Source: Accumulibacter sp. (GTDB taxonomy: Bacteria > Pseudomonadota > Gammaproteobacteria > Burkholderiales > Rhodocyclaceae). From it: a stretch of 64,000 nucleotides of DNA. The stretch covers positions 28,425 to 92,424 of the forward strand of contig NZ_JAMTDQ010000064.1 in assembly GCF_023806635.1 (NCBI RefSeq), given 5' to 3'. Numbering within the stretch: the first letter of the stretch is position 1; the number at the start of each line of letters is the position of its first letter. The notes beneath the pieces are model-generated. The model did not search any database and was not told where the DNA came from. It saw only the letters and a program-made list of their open reading frames with translations. Positions 10,813 through 30,104 of this stretch are shown one piece after another. The translations under genes were made by a program, and so were the position numbers.

Positions 10813-11673
10813 CTACCCGGCCGCCTCGGCGAGCACAGCCCTGGCGCTCATCGCCAACGTGCCGTCGGGCCCCTGCGCCGCGAGCGCATAGCCGCCATCC
10901 TCCTGGGTGCACACCAGCCGGAAGGGCGCCAGGTCGAAGAGCGGCGCCAGGCCGCGAAAACTGTATTCCTGCACCGGGCGTGTCACCTGATGTCGCAGCA
11001 GGTCCAGCAGCAGCACGGCGGTCAGCGGACCGTGCACGACGAGGCCAGGGTAGCCCTCCTCGTCGATCGCGTACGGACGATCGTAATGGATCCGGTGGGC
11101 GTTGAAGGTCAGCGCCGAGAAGCGGAAGAGCAGCCTCGGATCGGGCGTGACGATACGTGCGCAGGCTGCCGCCGGCAGCGGCGGCCAGTCGACGACCGTC
11201 GGCGCAGGCAGCGCCGGACCCGGTTCGCGGTAGACGATGTCCTGCTCTTCGTCGATGCACAGGCGATCGCCCTGATGGTAGCCGTGGTGCAGCGAAACGA
11301 AGGCCAGTGAGCCGGAGCGTCCGCTCTTCAAGCGTACATCGAGAATGGTGGTGACGCGTCGCGCCGACTGGCCGAGCAGCAACGGCGCGTGAAAGCGCAA
11401 CCGCGCGCCGGCGAACATCCGTCGCGGGAAAGGAATCGGCGGCATGAAGCCGCCGCGCTGCGGATGCCCGTCGACACCGAGGTGCGCCTGCGGCACCTGA
11501 GGCAGGAAGTAGAACCAGTGCCAGAGCGGCGGCAGCGCACTGCCGCAGGTAAAGCTCTCAGAGCCATCGCCGAGCGTCGCCGCGGCCGCCAGCACTGCCG
11601 CCAGCCCGAGATCGTCGTCAGTGCTATGCTGACGACCGATCCAGGCACTGAAGTCGCTGCCGGGGTTGCTCAT
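10813..11673 (-). CDS. Mesaconyl-C4-CoA hydratase-like protein (FAS1/HTD2-type dehydratase)
   Basis: A 286-residue protein of the MaoC/HTD2 family with an N-terminal FAS1-like dehydratase region. Diagnostic segments are LPPLWHWFYF, the GGFMPPIPFPRRMFAG block near residues 74-90, KSGRSGSLAFV, and the hydratase motif FNAHRIHYDRPYA with the conserved Asn/His pair. This family includes mesaconyl-C4-CoA hydratase (Meh) of the 3-hydroxypropionate bicycle and itaconyl-CoA hydratase; both form citramalyl-CoA. Proximity to ccr, ecm and mcd on the same strand and to mct and mcl across the intergenic region favours the Meh role. That is inference; generic 3-hydroxyacyl dehydratase activity is the alternative. 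Confidence 0.72.
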   Translation of the reverse strand: MSNPGSDFSAWIGRQHSTDDDLGLAAVLAAAATLGDGSESFTCGSALPPLWHWFYFLPQVPQAHLGVDGHPQRGGFMPPIPFPRRMFAGARLRFHAPLLLGQSARRVTTILDVRLKSGRSGSLAFVSLHHGYHQGDRLCIDEEQDIVYREPGPALPAPTVVDWPPLPAAACARIVTPDPRLLFRFSALTFNAHRIHYDRPYAIDEEGYPGLVVHGPLTAVLLLDLLRHQVTRPVQEYSFRGLAPLFDLAPFRLVCTQEDGGYALAAQGPDGTLAMSARAVLAEAAG

Positions 11674-11675
11674 CT

Positions 11676-11801
11676 ACTTGCACCCCGCCATTCGCTTGCC
11701 GAGCGAGGTGGGCATCAGGACCGCAGCGGCGATCTTCTCCGTTGCCGCACTGATGTCGATCGACAGCGCTTCGACATCCTGATGGTTCTGGGGATTCATG
11801 G
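11676..11801 (-). pseudogene. Duplicated, truncated copy of the phaJ 5' end (41-codon ORF)
   Basis: A small frame starting MNPQNHQDVEALSIDISAAT and ending GKRMAGCK. Its first 20 residues align with the start of the phaJ gene next door (MNPQNGYDIEDLSVGMSAET). The similarity also covers the DNA just upstream of both ATGs (each has CAGCAG, an AAGGACTG-type ribosome-binding site and GATGAATCC-like context). After about residue 25 the similarity is lost and the frame stops at 11676. This looks like a tandem duplication that was later truncated. It may still be translated because the ribosome-binding site is intact. It sits 2 bp upstream of the start of the Meh-like gene, so translation of it could feed into that gene. 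Confidence 0.55.
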
Positions 11802-11952
11802 CAGTCCTTCCTGCTGATCATCGGCACGGTTCCCGCCGCAGCAGGACGAAGGACGCCCGCTGCTGCCGGCACAGGCCGATTGTCTCGCGCTTTGTCGCTG
11901 CCGTGTACCTGTTTCGTCGCGAATCGATCTTCTGTCTGCCTGTCGACGCAGA

Positions 11953-12001
11953 GCGGCCGCCGCTTCCGGCTTCGCGCGAGACGAAACCGGAAGGCGGCCG
12001 C
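11953..12001 (-). terminator. Hairpin downstream of phaJ
   Basis: Two arms of about 20 nt (11953-11974 and 11982-12001) are inverted repeats with one 2-nt bulge and one mismatch, around a 7-nt loop. The hairpin lies 28 nt past the phaJ stop on the transcribed strand. There is no T-run, so it is either a Rho-assisted terminator or an mRNA-stabilising structure. Confidence 0.5.
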
Positions 12002-12028
12002 CGGCACGCGCTCGATCGCTGCAACCGA

Positions 12029-12475
12029 CTACTTGCCGGCCTCGCGCTTCTTGCGGGAGGTCGCCATCAAGGTGGCTTCGCCGTCGATGACCACCTTGTC
12101 GCCGACGGTGCACACGGTATCGAGCACCACCCGGCACTTGTCTTCGATCACTTCCTTGACGGTGACCCTGGCGCGCACCGTGTCGCCGGGACGAACCGGG
12201 GCGCGGAAGCGCAGCGACTGATTCATGTAGATCGTTCCGGGGCCGGGCAGGCGATTTCCCAACACCGCCGAGATCAGGCTGGCCGACAGCATGCCGTGCG
12301 CGATGCGGCCGCCAAACATCGTCGTGCGACCGAACTCCTCGTCCATATGAACCGCATTGACGTCCGTCGATACCCCCGCGAAGAGCACGAGATCGGCATC
12401 GGTGATGGTCTTGGCAGTTTCCGCGCTCATTCCGACCGACAGGTCTTCAATGTCGTAACCGTTTTGTGGATTCAT
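12029..12475 (-). CDS. phaJ: (R)-specific enoyl-CoA hydratase, MaoC family (PhaJ-like)
   Basis: Single-hotdog MaoC protein of 148 residues. The catalytic Asp/His pair is in STDVNAVHMDEEF (near residues 36-48), followed by GGRIAHGMLSASL near 54-66. PhaJ enzymes interconvert crotonyl-CoA and (R)-3-hydroxybutyryl-CoA, linking polyhydroxyalkanoate turnover to enoyl-CoA. Here the product crotonyl-CoA is the substrate of Ccr, encoded 1.4 kb upstream on the same strand, which fits an assimilatory direction from stored polymer. A good AAGGA ribosome-binding site precedes the ATG. The 5' end has a truncated duplicate at 11676-11801. Confidence 0.85.
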   Translation of the reverse strand: MNPQNGYDIEDLSVGMSAETAKTITDADLVLFAGVSTDVNAVHMDEEFGRTTMFGGRIAHGMLSASLISAVLGNRLPGPGTIYMNQSLRFRAPVRPGDTVRARVTVKEVIEDKCRVVLDTVCTVGDKVVIDGEATLMATSRKKREAGK

Positions 12476-12705
12476 GACAGTCCTTTCTGCTGAACATCGG
12501 CGCGGATTTGGCCGCGCCTGGGAAAAAGGCGCTCGCGACTGCCAGCGCCCGTCTGATCATCCCGCGGGTCCTGCCGTGCGCCTGGTCTCTCGCCAGGACG
12601 ACGATCACAACCGCGGGAAGCAAAGCATTGTCGCGGCGGACCGCTCCTCGGTGAGCCGGCAGCACGCAGCACGGTCGGAAGGCCGATCGGCGCTGCCGGC
12701 CATGG

Positions 12706-13683: not shown

Positions 13684-13786
13684 GGCTGGGGTTCAGGTGG
13701 TCCGGAAAACAGGCCGCCCTTCCCTGCTGCGAGGGCAAGGAAGGGTGCCGGCAGGATCAGGGCGACGTCGCCGTGACTCGTGCTCA

Positions 13787-13813
13787 TTCCCCTCCCCGGC
13801 GCAGGGAGGGGAA
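13787..13813. terminator. Perfect 10-bp hairpin between ccr and the MDR gene
   Basis: The arms TTCCCCTCCC (13787-13796) and GGGAGGGGAA (13804-13813) pair perfectly around a 7-nt loop. The hairpin lies about 35 nt beyond the ccr stop. It lacks a T-run, so termination is a suggestion. It might reduce read-through into the MDR gene while leaving some co-transcription. Confidence 0.45.
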
Positions 13814-13847
13814 GACACGACATCCGATCAACGCGAACAAGCGCAAC

Positions 13848-15602
13848 TCATTCGCCGATGATCTTGCGCACGACATCGGTCATCGAGATGACCCCAACCG
13901 GTTGATCCTTCTCGGTGACCACCAGGCGATGCATCCGCCGTGCAGTCAACAGGCTGACCGCGTCGCTCAACAGCATGTCGGCGTCGCAGGTCGCGCAGCC
14001 GGGCGTCATCACCTCGCGTGCCAGCATCGACCGCGCCTGCTCTGGCGTCCTCCCCTGCCGCGCCAGCACCATGTCGGTTTGCGACACGACCCCCACCGCG
14101 TTGCCTTCGGCATCCATCACCACGACCGCGTGAATTTCCTTCTCGACCATCAGCCTGGCGACCACACCAACGGTGTCGTCCGGAGTGCAGGAGATGATGC
14201 CGCGATGCATCAGGTCGCGGACACGGGTGCCGTCGTCGGCGATGGTGATCGGCTCGCCTTCGGCGATGCTCGGCAGCGGAACCGACATCGGGTACGGTGC
14301 CGGCGTCGTATGGACGTCGCCCTTCGGCAGCGTCGGGTGAACGATGGTCACCGGCGCCTTGCCGCTGACGCCGAGACCAAACTGCGTGGCGCTGATGAGA
14401 ACGGACATGTTGCCGTGCGGGTGCCTGTTGTCGTGCATCAATTGATGGGCAAGCGGCAGTTCCTCGTAGGCGAAGGCACGCGACATGCAGGGATCGAGCT
14501 GGCCACGCAGCGCCAGCTGATTCATCTCGTTGGACTGCACGGCATTGGCGAAATGCGATCCCTGCAGTCGCTTCTGCCGCATCCAGAGGTAGCGCAGATC
14601 GACCGTCGCATTGTAGCCGGTCGTGCCGGCGCAGACCACGACCATGCCGCCAGTCTCACAAACGAAAATCGAAGTCGGAATGGTCGTCTCGCCGGGATGC
14701 TCGAAAACGACGTTGGGTGCCCGCCGCTCACCCAGGATCTCCCAGATCTTCGAACCGAAGGCGCGCACTCCCTTGAGCCACTTGGCGTAGCCGGCGTTGT
14801 CCTTCCAGTGTGGCAGCATGCCCCAGTGGTCGAAGTCGTTGCGGTTGATGCAGCCCTTGGCACCGAGCTTCATGCAGTAGTCGTATTTGTCCTCGCCCGA
14901 GACGACGGCGACCGAAGTGGCGCCGACGGCCTTGGCAATCTGGATCGCCATCGAGCCGAGTCCTCCCGCCCCCCCCCAGATCAGCGCCACATCACCCTTC
15001 TTGATCGAACTGGCGCCCCAGCCGTGCAGCATCCGCCACGCGGTCGCCGCCACCAGCGTGTAGGCTGCCGACTCTTCCCAAGTCATGTGCTTGGGCTTCG
15101 GCATGCACTGATGACCCTGCACCCGGGTGAACTGGGCAAAGCTGCCATAGTTGGTCTCATAGCCCCAGATACGGAAGCTCGGCGAGTACATCGGGTCGCC
15201 GCCGTTCCTTACCCACTCGCAGTTGCGGCTCCACTGACCGCAGTGCATGACCACCTCGTCACCGACCTTGACATTGGTGACGTCCTTGCCGACCCGGTAC
15301 ACGATGCCCGAAGCATCGCTGCCACCGATGTGGAAATCCTCGGGTTCACCCGCCTTGTTGCGGGCGGCAATCACGTTGACCGGAATTCCGAGCGCGGCCC
15401 AGACATTGTTGTAGTTGATGCCGGCCGCCATCACAAGGACCAGCACCTCGTCGTCGGCAATCGCCGGCGTGTTGACCACTTCCTGCTGAAATGCCTCGGT
15501 CGGCTTGCCAAAGCGCTCCGGGCGGATCAGCCAGGCGTGCATCTTCTCCGGGACTTCGCCCAACGGAGGCAGTTCGCCAAGTGCATACAGTTGCTTGCTC
15601 AT
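13848..15602 (-). CDS. ccr: Crotonyl-CoA carboxylase/reductase fused to a CBS-domain pair
   Basis: Ccr reductively carboxylates crotonyl-CoA with NADPH and CO2 to (2S)-ethylmalonyl-CoA, the committed step of the ethylmalonyl-CoA pathway. Residues 1 to about 417 are a full Ccr: [27 protein letters not shown], the nucleotide motif [13 protein letters not shown], the [12 protein letters not shown] block and [14 protein letters not shown]. Normal Ccr proteins end soon after, near 430-450 residues. This one continues through a Pro-rich linker (about 418-460) into two CBS motifs, VRDLMHRGI to SQTDMV and AREVMTP to SMTDVV, ending at residue 584. No stop or frameshift separates the parts. CBS pairs usually bind adenine nucleotides, so energy-state control of carboxylation is a plausible inference. 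First gene of the EMC group after meaB-ecm, preceded by GAGGAG. Confidence 0.94.
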
Positions 15603-15614: not shown

Positions 15615-16631
15615 TTATGGTGAAAGGGTCGGTTGGTTGACCGACAGCAAACGGGAAAGAATATGCTCTCGCATACGCTCGTACTCCTCGAACTGACTCG
15701 ATCGACACGCGCCCAGCCGCTCCTCGATGGTGGTACGGCCGCCGAGCAGCCCCAGGCCGAAAGTGCCGAACTCCTCCTTCAGCAGCCGCAAGACCCAGCC
15801 ACTCTGGTGCTGGCTGCGCTGCCGCTCGAGGAGGCCGGCCGCGACGAGGAAGCGTCGGTGTCGATCGAAGTGCGCGTGAAACTCCTTGATACCTGTCTGC
15901 ATCGTCGCGCTCAGCAGGCAGACCGGGTAATCCCAGCCCTCACGGCGATCCTGCCGCGGGGCACTGCGACCGATCTCGCTCGCCGTCTTGCGGGCTGCGG
16001 CGCCGAGGTCGGCCTTGTTGACGGCGAAGATGTCGGGGATTTCGATGATCCCGGACTTGAGATACTGGATCGTGTCACCGGACGCTGGCTGCGCCACATA
16101 GCAGACGGTGTCGCCGATCTCGGCGATGTCGATCTCCGTCTGGCCGACGCCGACGGTCTCGATGACGACGACGTCGAAACAGGCCAGCAGCAGCCAGCTC
16201 ATCGGCCACACCTCGCTGGCGACGCCGCCCAGCTGGTTGCGATTGGCAAGCGAGCGGATGAAGAGCCCCTCGTCCTGCCCGACGCTCTTGATCCGGATGC
16301 GGTCGCCGAGCAGCGCGCCACCACCCAGTTCGGGCCGACTCGACGGATCGACCGCCAGAACACCGACCGTCCTGCCGGCGAGCCGCCATTCGCGGATCAT
16401 CGCCGACACCAGCGACGACTTGCCGGCACCCGGCGGTCCGGTGACGCCAATCAGGTGCCCCGCGCTCAGCGAACGCTCTCCGGACAGGCATGCGAGCAGC
16501 CGCACCGCGTGGCTGCGCGCCGCCGGCAGGCGGTTGTCCAGCAGGTTCAGGCCACTGGCAACGGCCGCCCGCTCACCGCCCTGGATCCGGGCCGCGAGCC
16601 GTTCGGGATCGGGAAGGACCAGGTTCGTCAT
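15615..16631 (-). CDS. meaB: Mutase-associated GTPase MeaB
   Basis: G3E-family GTPase that protects and reloads B12-dependent acyl-CoA mutases, cytoplasmic. The 338-residue form starting at 16631 is preceded by GAGAGG; an in-frame start at 16652 would add 7 residues and overlap ecm. The P-loop is GVTGPPGAGKSSL near residues 60-72. The Mg-binding and switch regions DPSSR and VIETVGVGQTE and the base-specificity motif NKAD are present. It is placed directly after ecm with a 7-bp gap, so its client is most likely ethylmalonyl-CoA mutase. Confidence 0.93.
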   Translation of the reverse strand: MTNLVLPDPERLAARIQGGERAAVASGLNLLDNRLPAARSHAVRLLACLSGERSLSAGHLIGVTGPPGAGKSSLVSAMIREWRLAGRTVGVLAVDPSSRPELGGGALLGDRIRIKSVGQDEGLFIRSLANRNQLGGVASEVWPMSWLLLACFDVVVIETVGVGQTEIDIAEIGDTVCYVAQPASGDTIQYLKSGIIEIPDIFAVNKADLGAAARKTASEIGRSAPRQDRREGWDYPVCLLSATMQTGIKEFHAHFDRHRRFLVAAGLLERQRSQHQSGWVLRLLKEEFGTFGLGLLGGRTTIEERLGACRSSQFEEYERMREHILSRLLSVNQPTLSP

Positions 16632-16638: not shown

Positions 16639-18657
16639 TCAGGAGAGTCCACCCAGCCGCTCGAGACCGTTGGTTTCCCGCACGACGTCGACGATGTCGC
16701 CCATGATCGCGTTCAGGTTGAAGTCCTTCGGCGTGTAGATCGCGCGCACCCCAAGCGCCAGCAACCGCTCGGCGTCCGCGGGCGGGATGATGCCGCCGGC
16801 AACCACCGGCAGGCCCGCCAGATCACGGGCGCGCAGTTCCTGCAGCACCGACCCGACCAGTTCCATGTGGCTTCCCGAGAGGATCGACAGCCCGACGACG
16901 TGCACCCCTTCCTCCTGCGCCGCCTGGGCGATCTGCTGCGGCGTCAGCCGGATGCCGTCGTAGACGACCTCGAAACCCACGTCGCGTGCCTTGACCGCCA
17001 CCTGTTCGGCGCCGTTCGAATGGCCATCGAGCCCCGGTTTGCCAACCAACAGCTTCAGCGGGCGGCCCAGCGCGTTGCCGGTGCGGGCGACCCGCTCCCT
17101 GAGGTCGGTCACCTGATCCTTCCTGCCGAGCACCTCGCGACTGTCGATGGCGATGTCGACCCCCGTCGGCGGCCGGAACTCGCCGAAGACGGCGCGCAGC
17201 GAATCACCCCACTCGCCGGTGGTGACACCTGCCAGCGCGCAGCGGATCGAGTTCGGCATGATGTTGTCGCCGCTCTTCGCCGCGTCGGCCAGCCCCTGCA
17301 GGGCAGCGCGCACGTCGGCATCGCTGCGCTGCCGGCGATGCTCCTGCAGCCTTTCGATCTGCTGCCGCTCGGCTGCCGGGTCGGACTTCATGATGGCGCC
17401 ATCGCTGCCGGCAGTCAGCGGTGACTCGGCTGTCTCGTGGAAACAGTTGACGCCGATGATCTTCAGCTCACCCGCCTCGATGGCGCGCAGGCGGCTCATG
17501 TGGCTACCGACCAGTTCGCGCTTGATGTAGCCCGACTCGATCGCGGCAATGATGCCGCCCTGCGCTTCGACGTTCTCGATCTCGCGCCGGGCTCCGGCGA
17601 TCAGTTCGCCGACCTTGGCGGCAATCACCGGCGATCCGTCGAAGATGTCCTCATACTCGAGGAGATCGGTCTCGAAAGCCATCACCTGCTGTATCCGCAG
17701 CGCCCATTGCTGATCCCACGGACGCGGCAGACCCATCGCCTCGTTCCAAGCCGGCAGCTGGATCGCACGTGCGCGCGCCCGCTTGGAGAGCGCGACCGCC
17801 AGCATCTCGAGGACGATCCGCTGCACGTTGTTTTCCGGCTGCGCCTCGGTCAGGCCGAGCGAGTTCACCTGCACGCCATAGCGAAAGCGACGCAGCTTCG
17901 CATCCTGGACCTGATAGCGGGTCAGTGTCAGCTCGTCCCACATTTCGCCGAATGCCCGCAGCTTGCAGCATTCCTCGATGAAGCGGATGCCGGCATTGAC
18001 GAAGAACGAGATGCGCTCGACGACCTGCGGAAACTCGTCCGGCGGGATTTCGCCTGAAGCCTTGACCCGGTCGAGAACCGCCATCGCCGTGCACAAGGCA
18101 TAAGCGAGTTCCTGCACCGGCGTCGCTCCCGCCTCCTGCAGGTGGTAGCTGCAGACGTTGGTCGGGTTCCACTTCGGCACGTTCTTCACCGTGTAGTTGA
18201 TCGTGTCGGCGATCAGCCGCATCGACGGGCCCGGCGGGTAGATGTAGGTGCCGCGTGACAGGTATTCCTTGATGATGTCGTTCTGGGTGGTGCCGCTGAG
18301 CGTCTTCGGATCGATTCCCCGCCGCTGCGCGAGACCGATGTACAGCGACAACAGCCACGCCGCGGTGGCGTTGATCGTCATCGAGGTGTTCATCTGGTCG
18401 AGCGGGATCTGGTCGAACAACTGATCCATGTCCGCGATGCTCGAGATCGGTACACCGACCTTGCCCACCTCGCCGCGCGCCAGTGGACTGTCGGCGTCGT
18501 AGCCGGTCTGCGTCGGCAGGTCGAAGGCGACCGACAGGCCGGTCTGCCCCTTGGCGAGATTCGTACGATAGAGCGCGTTGGACGCTCTGGCCGAGCTGTG
18601 ACCACTGTAGGTCCGCATCAACCACGGCTGGTCCTTCTTCCTGCGCGGGGCAACCAT
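16639..18657 (-). CDS. ecm: Ethylmalonyl-CoA mutase (B12-dependent)
   Basis: Adenosylcobalamin-dependent mutase converting (2R)-ethylmalonyl-CoA to (2S)-methylsuccinyl-CoA. It has 672 residues in one chain, the size of Ecm rather than of the longer methylmalonyl-CoA mutase. The N-terminal TIM-barrel starts at RTYSGHSSARASN with GLSVAFDLPTQTGYD; MNTSMTINATAAWLL and SGTTQNDIIKEYLSRGTYI follow. The C-terminal B12 domain carries the cobalt-binding DGHSNG (D-x-H-x-x-G) near residue 545 and GLSILSGSH further on. No epimerase gene is in the window, so that step must be encoded elsewhere. Two bases separate its start from the preceding MaoC gene, so the genes are almost certainly co-transcribed. Confidence 0.93.
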   Translation of the reverse strand: MVAPRRKKDQPWLMRTYSGHSSARASNALYRTNLAKGQTGLSVAFDLPTQTGYDADSPLARGEVGKVGVPISSIADMDQLFDQIPLDQMNTSMTINATAAWLLSLYIGLAQRRGIDPKTLSGTTQNDIIKEYLSRGTYIYPPGPSMRLIADTINYTVKNVPKWNPTNVCSYHLQEAGATPVQELAYALCTAMAVLDRVKASGEIPPDEFPQVVERISFFVNAGIRFIEECCKLRAFGEMWDELTLTRYQVQDAKLRRFRYGVQVNSLGLTEAQPENNVQRIVLEMLAVALSKRARARAIQLPAWNEAMGLPRPWDQQWALRIQQVMAFETDLLEYEDIFDGSPVIAAKVGELIAGARREIENVEAQGGIIAAIESGYIKRELVGSHMSRLRAIEAGELKIIGVNCFHETAESPLTAGSDGAIMKSDPAAERQQIERLQEHRRQRSDADVRAALQGLADAAKSGDNIMPNSIRCALAGVTTGEWGDSLRAVFGEFRPPTGVDIAIDSREVLGRKDQVTDLRERVARTGNALGRPLKLLVGKPGLDGHSNGAEQVAVKARDVGFEVVYDGIRLTPQQIAQAAQEEGVHVVGLSILSGSHMELVGSVLQELRARDLAGLPVVAGGIIPPADAERLLALGVRAIYTPKDFNLNAIMGDIVDVVRETNGLERLGGLS

Positions 18658-21606: not shown

Positions 21607-23049
21607 CTATTTCCGCGTCCGGTCATTGACGATGCGGACGAACGAGCGCGAACGCAATTCGTCCAGCGTGATCCCGGTCGCCAGGACTTCCTGCTCGGTG
21701 ATGGCACCGCAGGCCAGGCCGCGCAGGAAGAAGTTGAGCAACCCCTGGCCCGTTGCGGCATCGTCGAAGGTGTTGCCGACGAGCGTCGCCTGCGCCGCCT
21801 TGTTGAGGAAGGCGTTCAGCCGCGCCGAAGCATCCTGCAGGCCACTGAGGAAAAAGGTGTCGACCGCCGCGTAGCGCACCGGCAACTGCCCGGGATTGAG
21901 ATCCCACCCCTGGTAGTAGGCGTGCCGTAGCGAGTGCATGATGTTGTCGTAGTGCAGCTTCCACGCACCATGCACGACGGCACGGTTCTCGTCCAGCTGC
22001 TGCGGTGAGAGGGCCGCCCCGGCGGCCGCCTTGTGCGGTCCGATCGGCATGCTGGTGGTCGCGCCATCGCTGATCGTGATGCCGGTGCCGGCGAGGCTGA
22101 CCTGCAGCACGTGGCGGGCGAAATCGCACGAGGGGTGGGTGTGGCTCTGGTGCGCCGCCGTGATGTTGCACGACGCGGTGTAATCGTAGGTACCGAAGAT
22201 CGCCGACCGACAGCGGCCGGCAGCGGCGGCGACCAGCAGCGGCACCGTATTCTCGCCGCGGTGGTTGATGATCGACTGCGTCGTTTCGATCATGATCTCC
22301 ATGCGCAGCGAGTCTTTCGGAAAACCCAGCCGCGCCTCGAGCTTCGCCAGGATTCCGGCGCAGGCTGCGACCTGCTCGGGGGTGGTCACCTTGGGCAGGG
22401 TGACGATGAAGTTCTCCGGCAGCCGGCCGCCGGTCTTCCCGGCCAGGCGGGTGAGGAAGATGTCGAGCGTGCGGATCGAACGTACCTTGCACTCGTCGGA
22501 AAAGGTCTTGATACGGATGCCGATGAACGGCGAGAGAACGTTCTCGCTCATCCCCCTGGCGATCTCGTCGGCAGCGGCGACGGCGTGACCATCCTCCTCG
22601 TCGTCCGGCCGATTGCCGTAGCCATCCTCGAAGTCGACGCGGTTGTCCTCGATGGGCTCGGTCCGCAGCTTCTTGACCACCCGGTTATAGACGGTGAACG
22701 CCAGCCAGGCCGCCTGCTTGACCTCGCGCACCTGCTCCGGGTTGCTTTCCAGCGCGCGCGTCAGGCTATCGATTTCGACGGGGTTGCTGGGCAGGGTCTC
22801 CGCACCCGGCAAACCGAGAACGCGGGCGAAGACGTGATAGTTCGGCGCAAAGGTGTCGAGGGTCTTCAGCGCCACCTCGCCGAGTTTGCCGGCAAAGCCA
22901 GCCTTGAACAGGTTGGCGCCGCCGTAAACGGTGTGCACCGGCTGCCGCTCGGAGGAATCCGCGGGGTAATGCCCCTTGAAGGCTGCATTCGCCTCGTGCA
23001 GCTCGCCATAGCAGGCGTTCAGTTCGTCAGGGGTCAGCGTGAGCTTCAT
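21607..23049 (-). CDS. HpcH/HpaI-like aldolase of about 480 residues (DUF6986-like)
   Basis: Large member of the PEP/pyruvate-binding aldolase superfamily, 480 residues against about 320-350 for classical Mcl. Acidic metal-site segments are recognisable: RVDFEDGYGNRPDDEEDG near residues 137-154, MEIMIETTQS near 260 and FGTYDYTASCNI near 290. The N-terminal 120 residues (for example YGGANLFKAGF) are specific to this subgroup. First gene of the minus-strand EMC group by transcription order, with GGAGG upstream of the ATG. The context suggests cleavage of a malyl-CoA-type substrate, but the dedicated Mcl-like enzyme at 27969 could already do that, so its reaction is open. Confidence 0.7.
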   Translation of the reverse strand: MKLTLTPDELNACYGELHEANAAFKGHYPADSSERQPVHTVYGGANLFKAGFAGKLGEVALKTLDTFAPNYHVFARVLGLPGAETLPSNPVEIDSLTRALESNPEQVREVKQAAWLAFTVYNRVVKKLRTEPIEDNRVDFEDGYGNRPDDEEDGHAVAAADEIARGMSENVLSPFIGIRIKTFSDECKVRSIRTLDIFLTRLAGKTGGRLPENFIVTLPKVTTPEQVAACAGILAKLEARLGFPKDSLRMEIMIETTQSIINHRGENTVPLLVAAAAGRCRSAIFGTYDYTASCNITAAHQSHTHPSCDFARHVLQVSLAGTGITISDGATTSMPIGPHKAAAGAALSPQQLDENRAVVHGAWKLHYDNIMHSLRHAYYQGWDLNPGQLPVRYAAVDTFFLSGLQDASARLNAFLNKAAQATLVGNTFDDAATGQGLLNFFLRGLACGAITEQEVLATGITLDELRSRSFVRIVNDRTRK

Positions 23050-24077: not shown

Positions 24078-25406
24078 ATGACAGTGGAGCCAGACTCGAC
24101 CAAACCTGCCAGACAGCACGCTGCGTTGACAGGTGACGCGAGGGACGAACTGGCCGCGACAGGCGGGCCGTCGTCCGAGGACGAGCGTGAACGCCCGCCG
24201 GACGGCGAGCAACTGCCGATGAGCGGCCTGCGTGTCATCGACGTCGGCACCTTCCTCGCCGGTCCCCATGCGGCATCGATCCTGGGCGAGTTCGGCGCCG
24301 AGGTTCTCAAGGTGGAACATCCGGTCGCCGGCGATCCGATGCGACGCTTCGGCACGGCGTCGAAACGTCACGACGCGACCCTGGCGTGGCTCAGCGAAGG
24401 CCGCAACCGCAAGTCGGTGACCCTCGACCTGCGGCAACGCGAAGGGGTCGAGCTGTTCCTGAAGCTCGTCGGCAAGTCCGATGTCCTGATCGAGAACTTC
24501 CGCCCCGGGACGATGGAGGAGTGGGGGCTCGGCTGGGAGGAACTGCGACAGGCCAATCGCGGCCTGGTGATGCTGCGTGTCTCGGGCTACGGGCAGAGCG
24601 GACCGTACCGCCGGCGCTCGGGTTTTGCCCATATCGCGCACGGCTTCGCCGGCCTGTCCTATCTCGCCGGCTTCCCGGGGGAAACACCGGTGGTCCCGGG
24701 CACCGCGCCGCTCGGCGACTACCTTTCGAGCCTCTATGGTGCAATCGGCATCCTGCTCGCTTTGCGCCATCGTGAAGTCAGTGGTGAGGGACAGATCATC
24801 GACATCGCCATCTACGAGGCGGTCTTCCGCCAGATGGACGAGATCGCCGCGGCCTACGGCCTCTTCGGCAAGGTCCGCGAGCGCGAAGGCGCCGGCAGCT
24901 TCGTCGCCGTGCCGCACGGACACTTTCGCACGGTCGACGACAAGTGGGTGGCGATCGCCTGCACGACCGACCGGATGTTCGAACGTTTCGCTGCCGTGAT
25001 GGGCAAACCCGAACTCGCTGCCGCCGATCGCTACGGCAACCAGCGCCAGCGCCTGGCGGCACGTGACGAGGTCAACCGGCTGGTGATCGAATGGGTTGGC
25101 TCGCTGAACCGCGAGCAGGTGATGCAACGCTGCATCGACGGCGAGGTGCCGGTCGGCAAGCTGAACAGTATCGCCGACATCTTCGAGGACGAACACTTCC
25201 AGGCTCGCGGCAACCTCGCCCGGCTGTGCGAGGAAGGACTTGGCGAAGTCGTCATCCCTGGCGTCGTTCCCACCCTCTCCGAGACCCCGGGCCGAATCGC
25301 CAACCTCGGGCCGCCGCTGGGCAACGCCACCTACGAGATCCTGCGCGAGTTGCTCGGCATCCCGGCGCAGGAAATCAGGCGCCTGCGGCAGCGCCGGATC
25401 ATCTGA
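24078..25406 (+). CDS. Type III CoA-transferase, candidate succinyl-CoA:malate CoA-transferase subunit (SmtA-like)
   Basis: CaiB/BaiF family CoA-transferase of 442 residues. The ATG at 24078 has AGGGAGG upstream. The first 47 residues are charged and Pro-rich with no predicted fold; the enzyme proper begins MSGLRVIDVGTFLAGPHAAS and continues with [40 protein letters not shown] and GYGQSGPYR. It is followed 24 bp later by a clearly related transferase. In Chloroflexus, adjacent smtA and smtB encode the two subunits that activate L-malate with succinyl-CoA beside mct, mcl and mch; the same set here supports that role. Other carboxylic acids as acceptor remain possible. The frame extends upstream to 23796 without conserved sequence. 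Confidence 0.76.
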   Translation: MTVEPDSTKPARQHAALTGDARDELAATGGPSSEDERERPPDGEQLPMSGLRVIDVGTFLAGPHAASILGEFGAEVLKVEHPVAGDPMRRFGTASKRHDATLAWLSEGRNRKSVTLDLRQREGVELFLKLVGKSDVLIENFRPGTMEEWGLGWEELRQANRGLVMLRVSGYGQSGPYRRRSGFAHIAHGFAGLSYLAGFPGETPVVPGTAPLGDYLSSLYGAIGILLALRHREVSGEGQIIDIAIYEAVFRQMDEIAAAYGLFGKVREREGAGSFVAVPHGHFRTVDDKWVAIACTTDRMFERFAAVMGKPELAAADRYGNQRQRLAARDEVNRLVIEWVGSLNREQVMQRCIDGEVPVGKLNSIADIFEDEHFQARGNLARLCEEGLGEVVIPGVVPTLSETPGRIANLGPPLGNATYEILRELLGIPAQEIRRLRQRRII

Positions 25407-25430: not shown

Positions 25431-26660
25431 ATGCCCAAGACAGAAGACGCGGAAGATCGATTGCCGCTCGCCGGCATCCGTGTCATCGACGCGGCGACGG
25501 TGATTGCCGCGCCCTACAGCGCCAGCATCCTGGGCGAGTTCGGGGCCGAGGTCCTGAAGGTCGAGAATCCGCAGGGCGGCGACCCGATGCGCCACTTCGG
25601 CACGCCGACGCGCCGCAAGGACACGCTCGCCTGGCTGAGCGAAGCGCGCAACAAGAAATCGGTGACCATCGACCTGCGCCTGCCCGAAGGTGGCGAACTG
25701 TTCAAGGCGCTGATCGAGAAGTCGGATGTGCTGTGCGAGAACTTCCGCCCTGGCACGCTCGAGAAATGGGGGCTCGGCTGGGAGGTGCTGCGGCAGATCA
25801 ACCCGCGGCTGATCATGCTGCGCGTCACCGGTTACGGCCAGACCGGCCCCTACCGCGACCGGCCCGGTTTCGCCCGCGTCGCGCACGCCGTCGGCGGCAT
25901 CGCCTTCCTCTCCGGGATGCCGCGCGGCACGCCGGTGACACCGGGATCGACGACGCTTGGCGACTATCTCACCGGCCTCTACGGCTGCCTCGGCATCCTG
26001 ATGGCCCTGCGCCACCGTGACCGCACCGGCCAGGGACAGTACATCGACGCCGCACTCTACGAGTCGGTCTTTCGCTGCACCGACGAGTTGGCTCCGGCTT
26101 ACGGCATGTTCGGCCGCGTGCGCGAGCGGCACGGGCCGACGCACAACGATTTCGCGTGTCCACACGGACACTTCCCAACCAAGGATGACGGCAAGTGGGT
26201 GGCGATCTCGTGCGTCACCGACAAACTCTTCGAACGGCTGGCGACGGCCATGGGCCGACCGGAGCTGGCGGCACCACACGTCTACGGCGACCAGAAGACA
26301 CGGCTGGAAAACCGGCACGATGTGAACGAGATCGTCCGCGACTGGTGCGGCTCGCTGCATCGCGACGAGATCCTCGATCGCTGCTTCGCCGCCGGCGCAC
26401 CGGCCGGGCCGCTGAACAGCATCGCGGACATCTTCGGCGATCGACAGTTCCATGCCCGGCGCAACCTGGTCGCGATGGACGAGCCGGACATCGGCGAGAC
26501 GGTCATCGTGCCATCCGTGCTGCCGCGGCTGTCGCTGACGCCGGGACGCATCAAACACCTGGGACCGCGGCTGGGACAGCATACCGACGAGGTGCTGCAC
26601 GAACTGCTCGGCCTCGACGCGGCCGGAATCGAAGAACTGCGCCGCAAGCGCGTCATCTGA
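25431..26660 (+). CDS. Type III CoA-transferase, candidate succinyl-CoA:malate CoA-transferase subunit (SmtB-like)
   Basis: CaiB/BaiF family CoA-transferase of 409 residues, a close paralogue of the preceding gene: [30 protein letters not shown] and [14 protein letters not shown] occur in both at matching positions. Start ATG with AAGGA upstream. Type III transferases of this family often work as homodimers or as pairs of related chains; two tandem related chains followed by mct, mcl and mch match the smtAB arrangement of the 3-hydroxypropionate bicycle. Proposed reaction: succinyl-CoA plus (S)-malate gives (S)-malyl-CoA plus succinate, which Mcl then splits to acetyl-CoA and glyoxylate. Confidence 0.76.
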
Positions 26661-26681
26661 CACCACGGAGTCGAGCCTACG

Positions 26682-27902
26682 ATGCAGGGAATTCTCAGCG
26701 GTTTGCGAGTCGTCGAGGGCTCGGCTTTCGTCGCCGCGCCACTCGGCGGGATGACGCTCGCGCAACTTGGTGCCGAGGTCATCCGCTTCGACCCGCCTGG
26801 TGGCGGCCTCGACCAGGGTCGCTGGCCGCTGACCCTCGATGGTCGGCACAGCCTGTTCTGGGCCGGTCTGAACAAGGGCAAGCGCTCGATCGTCGTCGAT
26901 TTCCGCTTCCCGCGTGGACAGGAACTGCTGACGCAGCTGATCTGTGCTCCGGGCGAGCAGGCAGGGCTCTTCAGCACGAACTTCCCGGCCAGGGGCTGGC
27001 TGGCCTACGAGGCACTGCAGGCGCACCGCAAGGACCTGATCATGGTCCACCTCAGCGGGCGCCGTGACGGCAGTTCGGAAGTGGACTACACGCTGAACCC
27101 GCAGGTCGGCCTGCCGATGATGACCGGACCGCTCAGTTCGCCGGAGATGGTCAATCACGTCTTCCCAGCCTGGGATTTCATCAGCGGCCAGATGATCGCC
27201 GTCGGCCTGCTCGCCGCCGAGCGGCATCGGCGGCTGAGCGGCGAAGGACAACTCGTCCGTCTGGCCCTGAAGGACGTGGCGCTGGCGATGCTCGGCAATT
27301 TCGGCATGCTGGCCGAGGTGATGGTCAATGACAGCGACCGGCCACGGCAGGGCAACTATCTCTACGGCGCCTTCGGCCGCGACTTCGCGACGCTCGACGG
27401 CAAGCGGCTGATGATCGTCGGCCTGACGGCGATGCAATGGCACCGCCTGCTGAAGGCCACCGGTCTGCGCGAGGCGATCGCCGCCCTCGCTGCCCGCCTC
27501 GGCTTCGACCTCGAGAACGAGGGCAACCGCTATCGCGCGCGGCAGCAGATCGCCGCCCTGCTCGAACCGTGGTTTCACGCCCGCACGCTCGCCGAGGTGG
27601 CACAGACACTCGATGCGCATGGCGTCACCTGGGGTCCGTACCGCAGCGTGCGTGAAGCGATCGCGCTCGACCCCGACTGTTCGACCGACAATCCGATGTT
27701 CTCGCTCGTCGAACAACCGGGCATCGGCTCCTACCTGATGCCGGCAACGCCGCTCGATTTCAGCCGGGTGCCGCGCCTGCCGCCGATGCCGGCACCGCGA
27801 CTCGGGGAACACACCGACGAGATCCTGCTCGACGTCCTCGGCTTGAACGAGGCCGAGGTCGGCCGCCTGCACGATGCGCGCATCGTCGCCGGGCCGGCCT
27901 GA
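26682..27902 (+). CDS. mct: Mesaconyl-CoA C1-C4 CoA transferase
   Basis: Third type III CoA-transferase in the row, 406 residues, but clearly divergent from the first two. Its N-terminus GILSGLRVVEGSAFVAAPLG with HSLFWAGLNKGKRSIVVDFR and the segment ALKDVALAMLGNFGMLAEV (with the family's candidate catalytic Asp) resemble Mct of Chloroflexus. Mct moves CoA intramolecularly from the C1 to the C4 carboxyl of mesaconate, with no free CoA donor. It lies 21 bp after the SmtB-like gene and 66 bp before mcl. The alternative is an acyl-CoA racemase (AMACR-type), which the context disfavours. Confidence 0.82.
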   Translation: MQGILSGLRVVEGSAFVAAPLGGMTLAQLGAEVIRFDPPGGGLDQGRWPLTLDGRHSLFWAGLNKGKRSIVVDFRFPRGQELLTQLICAPGEQAGLFSTNFPARGWLAYEALQAHRKDLIMVHLSGRRDGSSEVDYTLNPQVGLPMMTGPLSSPEMVNHVFPAWDFISGQMIAVGLLAAERHRRLSGEGQLVRLALKDVALAMLGNFGMLAEVMVNDSDRPRQGNYLYGAFGRDFATLDGKRLMIVGLTAMQWHRLLKATGLREAIAALAARLGFDLENEGNRYRARQQIAALLEPWFHARTLAEVAQTLDAHGVTWGPYRSVREAIALDPDCSTDNPMFSLVEQPGIGSYLMPATPLDFSRVPRLPPMPAPRLGEHTDEILLDVLGLNEAEVGRLHDARIVAGPA

Positions 27903-27968
27903 CATCGCGGCCGCCGGCCGCATCCTGCCGCCGCATCCACACGCCTTCTTGCCACCAGGGGAAACGCC

Positions 27969-29012
27969 ATGAAACTGCCCGTCCATTTCTACAAACCGCT
28001 TGCCATCGGTGCGCCGCAACCCCTGCGTGAACTGCCCGTACGGCCGGAAAGGATGATCCACTTCTTTCCGCCGCACATCGAGAAGATTCGCGCCAAGGCG
28101 CCGGAGACCGCCCGCCAGTGCGACGTCCTGTGCGGCAACCTCGAGGACGCGATCCCGATCGACGCCAAGGAGGCGGCGCGTGCCGGTTTCATCGAACTGT
28201 TGAGCCAGCACGATTTCGGCGACACGGCCATGTGGGTGCGCGTCAATGCACTGAACAGCCCGTGGCTGCTCGACGACCTCGAACAGATCATCCGCCATGT
28301 CGGCAACCGGCTCGATGTCATCATGATCCCCAAGGTCGAGGGACCGTGGGACATCCATTTCGTTGATCAGTACGTCGCGCTGCTGGAAGCGAAGTACTCG
28401 GTGCGCAAGCCGATCCTGCTGCACGCGCTGCTCGAGACCGCGCAGGGGGTGAGCAACGTCGAGGCGATCTGCGGCGCCAGCCCGCGCATGCATGGCCTCA
28501 GCCTCGGTCCGGCCGACCTGGCCGCTTCCCGCGGCATGAAGACGACGCGGGTCGGTGGCGGCCATCCCGGCTACGGCGTCCTCGCCGACCCCGAAGCGGG
28601 TCACGATCAGCGCGCCTTCTTCCAGCAGGACCTCTGGCATTACACGGTCGCGCGCATGGTCGACGCCGCCGTCGCGCATGGTCTGCGCTCGTTCTACGGG
28701 CCGTTTGGCGATCTCAAGGACGAAGCCGCCTGCGAAGCGCAGTTCCGCAATGCCTTCCTGATGGGCTGCTCGGGAGCCTGGTCGCTGGCACCCAACCAGA
28801 TCGCCATCGCCAAGCGCGTTTTCAGCCCCGAGATCAAGGAAGTCCTCTTCGCCAAGCGTATCCTCGAGGCGATGCCTGACGGCAGCGGCGTGGCGACCAT
28901 CGACGGCAAGATGCAGGACGATGCCACCTGGAAGCAGGCGAAGGTCATCGTCGATCTGGCGCGACTGGTCGCCCGCCGCGACCCGGAACTCGCCGCCGCC
29001 TATGGCCTGTAG
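27969..29012 (+). CDS. mcl: Malyl-CoA / beta-methylmalyl-CoA / citramalyl-CoA lyase
   Basis: HpcH/HpaI-family lyase of 347 residues, matching the length of the trifunctional Mcl of Chloroflexus. Mg-binding and substrate residues lie in [17 protein letters not shown] near residues 55-71, and [15 protein letters not shown] near 155. [20 protein letters not shown] (read with MHGLS) gives the GPAD block, and the lid-type C-terminus is present. It cleaves (S)-malyl-CoA to acetyl-CoA and glyoxylate, condenses glyoxylate with propionyl-CoA to beta-methylmalyl-CoA, and splits (S)-citramalyl-CoA to pyruvate and acetyl-CoA. All three substrates are supplied by enzymes encoded in this island. Start ATG with a GGGGAAA upstream region. 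Confidence 0.88.
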
Positions 29013-29045
29013 CACACCCCATCAACGGCAGAGGGAGGACATGCA

Positions 29046-30104
29046 GTGAGCGCGAAGAACAGACTCGGCAACTTCTTTGAGGACTTCCAGGTTGGCCAGA
29101 AAGTCGCGCACGCGCCGCCGCGGACGATCACCGAAGGCGACGTCGCCCTGTACACGGCGCTGACCGGCTCACGCTTCGCGACCACCTCGGCCGATACCTT
29201 CGCCCACAGCCTCGGTTTCCCGCGCGCGCCGGTCGACGACCTCCTCGCCTTCAACATGGTGTTCGGGCGCACGGTACAGGACATCTCGCTGAACGCCATC
29301 GCCAACCTGGGTTACGCCGCCGGCCGTTTCGGCCACCCGGTCTACCCGGGCGACACACTCAGCGCCGACTCGACGGTGATCGGACTGCGGGAAAACAGCG
29401 ACGGCCGGTCGGGCATCGTCCATGTCAGGTCGTGCGGCGTCAACCAGCGCGGACAGATCGCCCTCGAGTACTGCCGCTGGGTGATGGTACGCAAACGCGA
29501 TCCCCGCTCGCCTCCCCAACCGACCTGCGTTCCCGAACTCCCCGACGAGGTCGATGTCGGCGAGCTGGTCGTTCCGGCGGGAATCCGCCTCAACCAGTAC
29601 GACACTTCGCTGTCCGGCAGCGACGAACTGTGGGAAGACTATGCCGCCGGCGAGCGCATCGATCACGTCGACGGCGTGACCATCGAGGAGAGCGAGCACA
29701 TGCTCGCCACTCGCCTCTACCAGAACGCGTCGCGCGTCCATTTCAACCAGCAGAGCGAGCGCGGCGGACGTTTCGGGCGGCGCGTCGTCTACGGCGGCCA
29801 CATCCTCAGCCTGGCGCGTGCGTTGTCGTTCAACGGGCTGGCCAACGCCTTCACCATCGCCGCCATCAATGGCGGCCGGCATGTCAGTCCGGCCTTCGCC
29901 GGCGACACCATCTATGCGTGGACCGAGGTCATCGAGCCGCTGACGCTGCCCGGGCGCAGCGATGTCGGCGCCCTGCGCCTGCGCACCGTGGCGACCAAGG
30001 ACCTGCCGTGCAGCAACTTTCCGTACAAGACGGCCGACGGCTCCCACGAGGCGGGAGTCCTGCTCGATTTCGACTACACGGTGCTGATTCCCCGGCGCGC
30101 GTAG
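29046..30104 (+). CDS. mch: Mesaconyl-C1-CoA hydratase (beta-methylmalyl-CoA dehydratase)
   Basis: Double-hotdog MaoC protein of 352 residues, the size of the characterised Mch of Rhodobacter and Chloroflexus. It begins GNFFEDFQVGQKVAHAPPRT, then ITEGDVALYTALTGSRFA; the second half has LWEDYAAGERIDHVDGVTIE and the hydratase segment NASRVHFNQQ. It interconverts mesaconyl-C1-CoA and (2R,3S)-beta-methylmalyl-CoA. Start is GTG at 29046 after GAGGGAGGA; the ATG at 29041 is immediately followed by a stop and can be excluded. Last gene of the smt-mct-mcl-mch operon, 33 bp after mcl. Confidence 0.88.
   Translation: MSAKNRLGNFFEDFQVGQKVAHAPPRTITEGDVALYTALTGSRFATTSADTFAHSLGFPRAPVDDLLAFNMVFGRTVQDISLNAIANLGYAAGRFGHPVYPGDTLSADSTVIGLRENSDGRSGIVHVRSCGVNQRGQIALEYCRWVMVRKRDPRSPPQPTCVPELPDEVDVGELVVPAGIRLNQYDTSLSGSDELWEDYAAGERIDHVDGVTIEESEHMLATRLYQNASRVHFNQQSERGGRFGRRVVYGGHILSLARALSFNGLANAFTIAAINGGRHVSPAFAGDTIYAWTEVIEPLTLPGRSDVGALRLRTVATKDLPCSNFPYKTADGSHEAGVLLDFDYTVLIPRRA

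What the first reader, a model, noticed from the sequence alone, without database searches (positions are those of the whole stretch)
10813..30104. Two pathways meet at mesaconyl-CoA: ethylmalonyl-CoA genes beside the second half of the 3-hydroxypropionate bicycle
The sequence shows phaJ, ccr, meaB, ecm, a MaoC hydratase and mcd on one strand, with SmtA/SmtB-like transferases, mct, mcl and mch on the other and a Meh-like hydratase at the far end. From known chemistry, Mcd makes mesaconyl-C1-CoA, which is also the substrate of Mct. Mct, Meh and Mcl would then give citramalyl-CoA and split it into pyruvate and acetyl-CoA. My inference is that crotonyl-CoA plus CO2 can be converted to pyruvate plus acetyl-CoA without passing through free glyoxylate, so net acetyl-CoA plus CO2 gives pyruvate. 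PhaJ would let stored polyhydroxybutyrate enter directly. I do not know a described route with this exact wiring.
Basis: partly seen in the sequence, partly recalled or inferred. Interest (0 to 1): 0.9.

Follow-up and report, generated by a model that had tools for sequence, protein, structure and literature searches.

The report
Pyruvate-making carbon-fixing gene cluster
A wastewater bacterium carries, side by side, two known gene sets that meet at one chemical, so it could build pyruvate from acetate and carbon dioxide by a route that has been drawn up on paper as an artificial design; similar gene sets occur in other bacteria, but the flow has not been measured here.

Summary
The genes are as described, with additions. 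The genome is a Ca. Accumulibacter. One strand carries DUF6986-mcd-MaoC hydratase-ecm-meaB-ccr, then qor, phaJ, meh; the other smtA-smtB-mct-mcl-mch, then por and ppdk. Mct passes its curated model and has the published catalytic residues. Propionyl-CoA synthase was not found, so this is not the autotrophic bicycle.

Comparison supports the inferred join at mesaconyl-CoA. (1) SmtB, part of the malate entry, is missing genome-wide in 10 of 10 genomes lacking smtAB beside mct; 9 of the 10 have mcd. (2) Two other Mct clades carry mcd in 9 of 9 tested members each; of these 18 loci, 9 have meh and 6 a CitE-like lyase near mct. (3) In 398 sampled Pseudomonadota, mct is moderately enriched with ccr plus mcd (8/58 against 16/340; p = 0.014).

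The same overall route was designed on paper in 2021 (PMC10521678); my searches listed no paper describing it as natural. Against: the operon has its own hydratase and a lyase-like protein, so flow through glyoxylate is not excluded; 50 of 58 ccr+mcd genomes lack mct; I found no expression or flux data for mct.

The parts
10813..11673 (-). meh, mesaconyl-C4-CoA hydratase candidate (286 aa)
   Evidence: 65% identical to the gene beside smtA in a Chloroflexus cluster (L028); 244 bits to solved itaconyl-CoA hydratase 8khg; a homologue at E <= 1e-10 in 44 of 50 mct genomes
12029..12475 (-). phaJ-like MaoC hydratase (148 aa)
   Evidence: PF01575 89.5 bits
12706..13683 (-). PIG3-like NAD(P)H oxidoreductase, substrate unknown
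   Evidence: TIGR02824 254.7 bits, under its cut-off of 296.8
13848..15602 (-). ccr, crotonyl-CoA carboxylase/reductase
   Evidence: TIGR01751 569.6 bits, cut-off 378.55; 494.5 bits to solved Ccr 4gi2
15615..16631 (-). meaB, mutase-associated GTPase
   Evidence: TIGR00750 224.8 bits, cut-off 240.75
16639..18657 (-). ecm, B12-dependent acyl-CoA mutase, ethylmalonyl-CoA mutase by context
   Evidence: TIGR00641 445.6 bits and TIGR00640 117.4 bits, both over cut-off
18660..19847 (-). MaoC hydratase of the ccr operon, divergent from canonical Mch
   Evidence: PF19315 81.4 bits; only 120-130 bits to solved Mch
19891..21567 (-). mcd, (2S)-methylsuccinyl-CoA dehydrogenase
   Evidence: 621.8 bits to 8ciw over residues 21-557
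21607..23049 (-). DUF6986 protein, CitE-like C-C lyase candidate
   Evidence: PF22484 581 bits; hhalign probability 94% to an Mcl/CitE alignment over 86 columns; 1 of 398 sampled Pseudomonadota genomes, the own one
24126..25406 (+). smtA-like CoA transferase (start uncertain)
   Evidence: 77% to Chloroflexus L028; Asp at the Mct Leu43 column
25431..26660 (+). smtB-like CoA transferase
   Evidence: 74% to Chloroflexus L028; Asp at the Mct Leu43 column
26682..27902 (+). [quoted passage not shown]
   Evidence: TIGR04253 832 bits, cut-off 725; 735.8 bits to 8apq; Leu43, Arg47, Asn100, Asp165
27969..29012 (+). mcl, malyl-CoA/beta-methylmalyl-CoA/citramalyl-CoA lyase
   Evidence: 666.9 bits to 4l7z; malyl-CoA lyase 4l9y only 190.9; 83% to Chloroflexus L028
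29046..30104 (+). mch, mesaconyl-C1-CoA hydratase, canonical type
   Evidence: 544.5 bits to 4e3e and 443.4 to 8hgn
31440..34307 (+). porG, porA, porB: pyruvate:ferredoxin oxidoreductase subunits (31440-32036, 32029-33282, 33294-34307)
   Evidence: PF01558, PF01855/PF17147, PF02775; downstream of mch in 13 of 21 related loci listed, some of which end early
34307..35929 (+). flavin/iron-sulfur oxidoreductase beside por
   Evidence: PF07992, PF14691
36093..38825 (+). ppdk, pyruvate phosphate dikinase
   Evidence: PF01326, PF00391, PF02896

Best explanation
This is a central-carbon gene cluster of Ca. Accumulibacter in which the ethylmalonyl-CoA pathway is extended from mesaconyl-CoA to pyruvate. 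Ccr carboxylates crotonyl-CoA (made from two acetyl-CoA or, through PhaJ, from stored PHB). Ecm and Mcd give mesaconyl-C1-CoA, Mct moves the CoA to C4, Meh hydrates the product to citramalyl-CoA, and Mcl splits it into pyruvate and acetyl-CoA. Net: acetyl-CoA + CO2 + 2 NADPH give pyruvate plus one reduced electron carrier. Ppdk could pass the pyruvate on to glycogen. Shown here: gene content, family membership of Ccr, Mcd, Mct, Mcl and Mch by sequence, catalytic residues of Mct, and conservation. Inferred: the substrate of Meh, the direction, simultaneous expression and the real flux. The route probably runs alongside the conventional split to glyoxylate and propionyl-CoA, which the same locus can make and rejoin.
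For: Mct passes TIGR04253 and keeps Leu43, Arg47 and Asp165, the residues named in PMC9813914 (which lists the Ca. Accumulibacter phosphatis Mct among the intramolecular ones) and PMC9196870 (passages read; alignment). SmtB is absent genome-wide at E <= 1e-80 (five genomes) or only a 43-44% paralogue is found (five genomes) in 10 of 10 genomes lacking smtAB beside mct, with 3 of 3 controls positive; L004 keeps a partial smtB-like stretch. 9 of the 10 have mcd (8; L003). Of 50 tested mct genomes, 33 have mcd and 44 a meh homologue. The Mct tree has a mostly alphaproteobacterial clade and a clade of Contendobacter plus unnamed families, with mcd in 9 of 9 tested members each; of these 18 loci 9 have meh and 6 a CitE-like lyase near mct. 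Even sample: 8 of 58 ccr+mcd genomes have mct against 16 of 340 others, one-sided Fisher p = 0.014; genus level 7/43 against 9/170, p = 0.023. Propionyl-CoA synthase not found here. Free energy favourable in PMC10521678.
Against: The ccr operon carries its own hydratase and a lyase-like DUF6986 protein, which suits the conventional end products. 50 of 58 ccr+mcd genomes lack mct. In the sample 10 of 24 mct genomes lack mcd, 7 of them one genus, and the one looked at (L164) keeps mct with meh, mcl and mch. Dechloromonas SSD3 (L020) keeps meh-mct-mcl-mch with no mcd or ccr match and only a 44% SmtB paralogue, so the module has another use there. mct-mcd adjacency in three genomes (G429, G120, G264) lies in clusters that look catabolic and lack ccr, so it gives no support. 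Three mct+mcd genomes (L064, L065, L067) lack both ccr and meh matches. The transcript paper on Accumulibacter (PMC12604563; passages and one section read) reports EMC genes up under low phosphate; its main text has no hit for mesaconyl, malyl-CoA or 3-hydroxypropionate.
Confidence: 0.52

Rival explanations
1. Two pathways in series through glyoxylate: the ccr operon with its own hydratase and DUF6986 lyase makes glyoxylate and propionyl-CoA; the mct operon then joins these (Mcl, Mch) and converts them to pyruvate and acetyl-CoA. The net product is the same, but glyoxylate and propionyl-CoA are free intermediates and propionyl-CoA can be drawn off for polyhydroxyvalerate.
For: Gene sets for both halves; the MaoC hydratase and DUF6986 sit in the ccr operon (gaps of 2 to 43 bases between neighbours in the window, from the coordinates; similar in relatives); PMC12604563 and PMC8956781 read the EMC pathway in these organisms as a source of propionyl-CoA (passages and one section).
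Against: The two halves share the mesaconyl-C1-CoA pool, so if both are on, the short cut exists. DUF6986 is a lyase only by weak profile similarity.
Confidence: 0.27
2. The module assimilates glyoxylate and propionate from other sources (fed propionate, glyoxylate from malyl-CoA through SmtAB) and its closeness to the ccr operon is shared history, not joint use.
For: Dechloromonas SSD3 and three Accumulibacter-like genomes (L011-L013) keep it without mcd or ccr matches; Kentron keeps it without the EMC pathway (PMC6593406, passages); the Accumulibacter Mct lies inside the clade that holds the Chloroflexi and Burkholderiales sequences; an operon of L166 puts meh and mct with malate-CoA ligase genes and a glyoxylate-aminotransferase-like gene.
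Against: SmtB lost in 9 genomes with mcd; other mcd-bearing clades also carry mct and meh homologues.
Confidence: 0.13
3. Reverse use (citramalate-cycle style): pyruvate from glycogen plus acetyl-CoA is turned into mesaconyl-CoA and on to propionyl-CoA plus glyoxylate as an anaerobic electron and propionyl-CoA outlet.
For: Citramalate cycle reported for Rhodospirillum rubrum (PMC8307300, passages); the organism alternates glycogen breakdown with acetate uptake (general knowledge).
Against: Joining pyruvate and acetyl-CoA to citramalyl-CoA is thermodynamically uphill (general knowledge); it would not need Ccr, Ecm or Mcd.
Confidence: 0.06

Closest known systems
Reductive citramalyl/ethylmalonyl-CoA pathway (design, PMC10521678, 2021)
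   Same: Same overall chemistry and net reaction: acetyl-CoA + HCO3- + 2 NADPH + quinone to pyruvate
   Different: A computed artificial design; here the genes occur together in a natural genome, with SmtAB, DUF6986, por and ppdk added
Ethylmalonyl-CoA pathway
   Same: Ccr, B12 mutase with MeaB, Mcd
   Different: Canonical pathway ends in glyoxylate and propionyl-CoA; here Mct, Meh and a Chloroflexus-type Mcl add an exit to pyruvate; the hydratase in the operon is divergent
Second half of the 3-hydroxypropionate bi-cycle (Chloroflexus; partial in Kentron, Accumulibacter, Competibacter)
   Same: smtA-smtB-mct-mcl-mch with meh, 65-83% identical to a Chloroflexus locus
   Different: Propionyl-CoA synthase not found; mesaconyl-CoA can come from Mcd
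Itaconate/methylsuccinate degradation cluster (PMC12290011, passages)
   Same: Ends through mesaconyl-C4-CoA and citramalyl-CoA in acetyl-CoA and pyruvate; Meh resembles itaconyl-CoA hydratase 8khg
   Different: A C4-specific methylsuccinyl-CoA dehydrogenase acts there; the passages seen name no Mct step and no carboxylation

Membership tests
[quoted passage not shown]
   832 bits, cut-off 725
[quoted passage not shown]
   Leu43, Arg47, Asp165 present; SmtA and SmtB have Asp at column 43. Of 100 homologues, Arg47, Asn100 and Asp165 in 100; position 43 is Leu in 90, Pro in 6, Met in 2, Ile in 1, Val in 1
Ethylmalonyl-CoA pathway | Crotonyl-CoA carboxylase/reductase | tested here: met
   TIGR01751 569.6 bits, cut-off 378.55
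Ethylmalonyl-CoA pathway | (2S)-Methylsuccinyl-CoA dehydrogenase with N-terminal extension | tested here: met
   8ciw 621.8 bits over residues 21-557
Ethylmalonyl-CoA pathway | Ethylmalonyl-CoA mutase specificity | tested here: inconclusive
   General acyl-CoA mutase models only; assigned by operon context
Ethylmalonyl-CoA pathway | Canonical mesaconyl-C1-CoA hydratase in the ccr operon | tested here: inconclusive
   Only 120-130 bits to solved Mch; PF19315 81 bits
Ethylmalonyl-CoA pathway | Ethylmalonyl-CoA epimerase | not tested
   None among the proteins sent; genome not searched
3-Hydroxypropionate bi-cycle | Propionyl-CoA synthase | tested here: not met
   Own genome (99.99% complete) has only a 40% match to the query's 408-849 stretch; full length in Chloroflexus (63%), in L050's genome (74%) and in the query's own genome, in two pieces in Roseiflexus
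3-Hydroxypropionate bi-cycle | Malonyl-CoA reductase | not tested
   No query at hand
3-Hydroxypropionate bi-cycle, second half | Chloroflexus-type Mcl and canonical Mch | tested here: met
   4l7z 666.9 bits; 4e3e 544.5 bits; sequence only, activity not tested
Mesaconyl-C4-CoA hydratase (Meh) | Activity on mesaconyl-C4-CoA | not testable with these tools
   Sequence and context only
Glyoxylate cycle | Isocitrate lyase | tested here: inconclusive
   PF00463 at E <= 1e-60: 0 of 39 genomes, own included; 3 of 14 control genomes positive. Weaker or split matches would be missed, and PMC2289847 mentions isocitrate lyase in this system as unpublished (passage)

The most novel reading that the evidence does not exclude
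A natural, ferredoxin-independent route from acetyl-CoA and CO2 to pyruvate (Ccr-Ecm-Mcd-Mct-Meh-citramalyl-CoA lyase) operates in several separate bacterial lineages (Accumulibacteraceae, a mostly alphaproteobacterial clade, and Contendobacter with related unnamed families). In PHB-storing bacteria it turns polymer plus CO2 into pyruvate and glycogen, needing neither glyoxylate nor pyruvate synthase.
Probability: 0.38. Interest if true: 0.8.

Novelty: new variant of a known kind. Interest (0 to 1): 0.62.

Why it matters
If real, nature already runs a carbon-conserving acetyl-CoA to pyruvate route that engineers proposed as artificial, in a bacterium central to biological phosphorus removal. 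It would change how carbon and redox balances of PHB- and glycogen-cycling bacteria are modelled, give synthetic biology natural enzyme sets, and help explain why mct and meh occur in bacteria without propionyl-CoA synthase.

Tried and rejected
Direct mct-mcd adjacency (G429, G120, G264) first looked like strong support. The neighbours examined in L149-L151 (3-hydroxyacyl-CoA dehydrogenase, acyl-CoA ligase, thiolases, a short-chain dehydrogenase) look catabolic and ccr is missing, so I dropped these as support. A first association test with mcd alone gave p = 1.7e-6 at genome level; it was replaced by the stricter ccr+mcd test, p = 0.014. Dropping the 5 genomes whose hits all carry Pro43 (G264, G291, G309, G361, G426) gives p = 0.0026, but that filter was chosen after seeing the data; G330, with Leu43 but 47% identity, was kept, and so were genus g102 (the one member read, L164, has Met43) and G341 with Val43.

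The AlphaFold model of DUF6986 had mean pLDDT 51 (9 close sequences), so no fold search was made; the lyase reading rests and on CitE-like motifs that I recall. Upstream alignments of the two operons showed a TATACT-like element before mct and smtA but no shared operator that I could see. The isocitrate lyase search is inconclusive because I set the threshold too strictly and no search was left. The autotrophic bi-cycle was rejected for lack of propionyl-CoA synthase.


Full report
WHAT IS THERE. The window (66% G+C) lies in contig 64 of a 4.47-Mb genome, 99.99% complete. Its Mct is 96% identical to those of Ca. Accumulibacter iunctus, adjunctus and conexus, so the source is a Ca. Accumulibacter. 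The minus strand holds DUF6986, mcd, a MaoC hydratase, ecm, meaB and ccr, with gaps of 2 to 43 bases between neighbours (from the coordinates), then a PIG3-like oxidoreductase, phaJ and meh. The plus strand holds smtA, smtB, mct, mcl and mch, then porG, porA, porB, an oxidoreductase and ppdk.

HOW SURE THE NAMES ARE. Ccr and Mct pass their curated cut-offs (569.6 against 378.55 bits; 832 against 725). Mcd matches a solved (2S)-methylsuccinyl-CoA dehydrogenase with 621.8 bits. Mcl matches entries 4l7z/4l80 with 666.9 bits but malyl-CoA lyase 4l9y with only 190.9; that 4l7z/4l80 is the trifunctional Chloroflexus aurantiacus enzyme is from general knowledge and the title of PMC3832036 in a search listing. 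Mch is canonical (544.5 bits to 4e3e). The hydratase inside the ccr operon is not (130 bits). Meh is 65% identical to the gene beside smtA in a Chloroflexus locus and resembles itaconyl-CoA hydratase 8khg (244 bits). Mct has Leu43, Arg47, Asn100 and Asp165. PMC9813914 (passages) ties Leu or Ile at 43 to intramolecular transfer and names the Ca. Accumulibacter phosphatis enzyme among these; PMC9196870 (passages) ties Asp165 and Arg47 to catalysis. SmtA and SmtB have Asp at that column.

NOT THE AUTOTROPHIC BI-CYCLE. A Burkholderiales mct locus (L061) carries next to mch a long reading frame that I take for propionyl-CoA synthase (the name rests on size, position and its match in Chloroflexus). 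Searched in 15 genomes at E <= 1e-50, it is full length in its own genome, in L050's genome (74%) and in Chloroflexus (63%), and in two pieces in Roseiflexus. The four Accumulibacter genomes searched, the own one included, give only a 40% match to its part from about residue 407 to 867. One gammaproteobacterial MAG (G031) has a 59% identical fragment. PMC9802188 (passages) reports the bi-cycle in Burkholderiales.

DOES THE JOIN MEAN SOMETHING? First, input loss. Of 21 Accumulibacter-type loci set out, ten lack a full smtAB beside mct (L004 keeps a partial smtB-like stretch). In all ten genomes smtB is missing genome-wide (five no match at E <= 1e-80, five only a 43-44% paralogue), while the own genome and two controls have it. 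Nine of the ten carry mcd (eight; L003 in its locus); the tenth, Dechloromonas SSD3, does not. Three Accumulibacter-like genomes without mcd (L011-L013) keep smtAB. So the malate entry is lost mostly where the ethylmalonyl-CoA genes can feed the module; the sample is small and the genomes are related.

Second, other lineages. One search found 408 stretches encoding relatives of Mct and kept the best 80 loci; I could test 50 of these 80 genomes (cap). Of the 50, 33 have mcd at E <= 1e-80, 44 a meh homologue at E <= 1e-10, 30 a ccr homologue at E <= 1e-60, of which three are 42-44% actinobacterial matches, and 47 some Mch-like hydratase at E <= 1e-15. In the Mct tree (71 tested rows) a mostly alphaproteobacterial clade (9 rows, among them one MAG labelled Gammaproteobacteria and one labelled Anaerolineae) and a clade of Contendobacter/Competibacteraceae plus unnamed families f38, f42, f55 and f76 (9 rows) consist only of genomes with mcd. 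Of these 18 loci, 9 have meh and 6 a CitE-like lyase near mct. 'EMC' in that tree means mcd: ccr was not found in L056, L075 and L080, nor in the three Myxococcota-labelled genomes (L064, L065, L067), and these last three also lack a meh match. A Contendobacter locus reads smtA-smtB-meh-CitE-like lyase-mct (L136/L080). Three loci of the unnamed family f55 (L154, L165, L166) hold lyase, meh and mct in one run; in L166 the run is a BhcA-like aminotransferase, CitE-like lyase, malate-CoA ligase beta, a succinate-CoA-ligase-type alpha subunit, meh and mct, beside a divergent RamB-like regulator (regulator, aminotransferase and lyase score under their curated cut-offs). That setting fits glyoxylate handling too. 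The Mct of L166 scores 505 bits, under the TIGR04253 cut-off, but has Leu43.

Third, an even sample. In 398 Pseudomonadota genomes mct was found in 24 (E <= 1e-100), mcd in 66 (E <= 1e-80), ccr in 61 (E <= 1e-120), and ccr plus mcd in 58. mct occurs in 8 of 58 such genomes and 16 of 340 others (one-sided Fisher p = 0.014); by genus 7 of 43 and 9 of 170 (p = 0.023). Leaving out the 5 genomes whose hits carry Pro43 gives p = 0.0026 and 0.003, but that is after the fact. The link is moderate: 50 of 58 genomes with the ethylmalonyl-CoA genes do without mct. Near relatives are not fully independent in any of these tests.

MECHANISM. Two acetyl-CoA give crotonyl-CoA (or PHB gives it through PhaJ). 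Ccr adds CO2, Ecm and Mcd give mesaconyl-C1-CoA, Mct moves CoA to C4, Meh adds water, and Mcl gives pyruvate and acetyl-CoA. Net: acetyl-CoA + CO2 + 2 NADPH to pyruvate + CoA + 2 NADP + one reduced carrier (my stoichiometry from known chemistry; it agrees with Table 1 of PMC10521678, -39 +/- 9 kJ/mol). The por genes beside it would catalyse the ferredoxin version of the same net step, and ppdk would lift pyruvate to phosphoenolpyruvate (inference). Free glyoxylate is not shown to be avoided: Mch, the second hydratase, Mcl and perhaps DUF6986 connect the same pool to glyoxylate plus propionyl-CoA. Ethylmalonyl-CoA epimerase, ketothiolase and electron-transfer flavoprotein were not searched for.

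PRIOR ART. PMC6593406 (passages) lists the partial 3-hydroxypropionate cluster in Accumulibacter and Competibacter and says the Kentron symbionts lack the ethylmalonyl-CoA pathway. PMC8956781 (passages) reads the ethylmalonyl-CoA pathway in Contendobacter as a propionyl-CoA source and remarks that mesaconyl-CoA also takes part in glyoxylate and dicarboxylate metabolism. PMC12604563 (passages and one section) reads it so in Accumulibacter; its main text has no hit for mesaconyl, crotonyl, malyl-CoA or 3-hydroxypropionate. PMC10521678 (section 15 in full, passages elsewhere) designs the joined route as artificial; the word Accumulibacter does not occur in it. PMC12766714 (2025, Accumulibacter genomics) has no hit for any of six terms. 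Searches listed no paper whose title or opening abstract lines describe the joined route as natural; the lists were cut (20 of 45, 40 of 55, 4 of 4, 25 of 34, 23 of 23, 15 of 98 and 30 of 148 papers shown), and subscription papers are mostly not held. Zarzycki 2009 and Zarzycki & Fuchs 2011 are not held and may discuss it.

VERDICT. Observation confirmed; interpretation partly supported and strengthened by comparison; novelty is a new combination of known enzymes, a natural counterpart of a paper design, still without biochemical proof.

Noticed in passing
window 21607-23049: A DUF6986 protein (PF22484) is the first gene of the ccr operon; it was found in 1 of 398 sampled Pseudomonadota genomes (the own one) and in the loci of related Accumulibacter and Propionivibrio; it may be an uncharacterised C-C lyase.
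   Followed up: partly
window 18660-19847: The hydratase inside the ccr operon is far from canonical Mch, and the same divergent type sits beside mcd or ecm in Contendobacter and several other proteobacterial genomes.
   Followed up: partly
window 31440-38825: Pyruvate:ferredoxin oxidoreductase genes follow the mct operon in 13 of 21 related loci set out, mostly with pyruvate phosphate dikinase after them.
   Followed up: partly
L166:2396-10423 (also L154, L165): In L166 a RamB-like regulator stands beside an operon of BhcA-like aminotransferase, CitE-like lyase, malate-CoA ligase beta, a ligase alpha subunit, meh and mct, in an unnamed family (f55). L154 and L165 show matching gene order by size and by lyase, meh and mct hits.
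   Followed up: partly
L149, L150, L151: mct-like and mcd-like genes lie close together in clusters that look catabolic, in genomes without ccr; the substrate is unknown.
   Followed up: partly
L061:13461-18950: A probable propionyl-CoA synthase lies directly after mch in four Burkholderiales-type mct loci (L057, L061, L062, L070).
   Followed up: yes
L043 and L042: A MAG labelled Anaerolineae carries an mct locus nearly identical to that of an alphaproteobacterial MAG, probably mis-binned.
   Followed up: no
L008:3992-5432: The DUF6986 gene of Ca. Accumulibacter contiguus is matched in two pieces, as if frame-shifted or mis-assembled.
   Followed up: no
L119:4046-11348 with L046 (genome G031): A gammaproteobacterial MAG holds a second, more distant mct beside two mcl-like genes and meh, together with an ethylmalonyl-CoA operon (L120) and a fragment like propionyl-CoA synthase.
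   Followed up: partly
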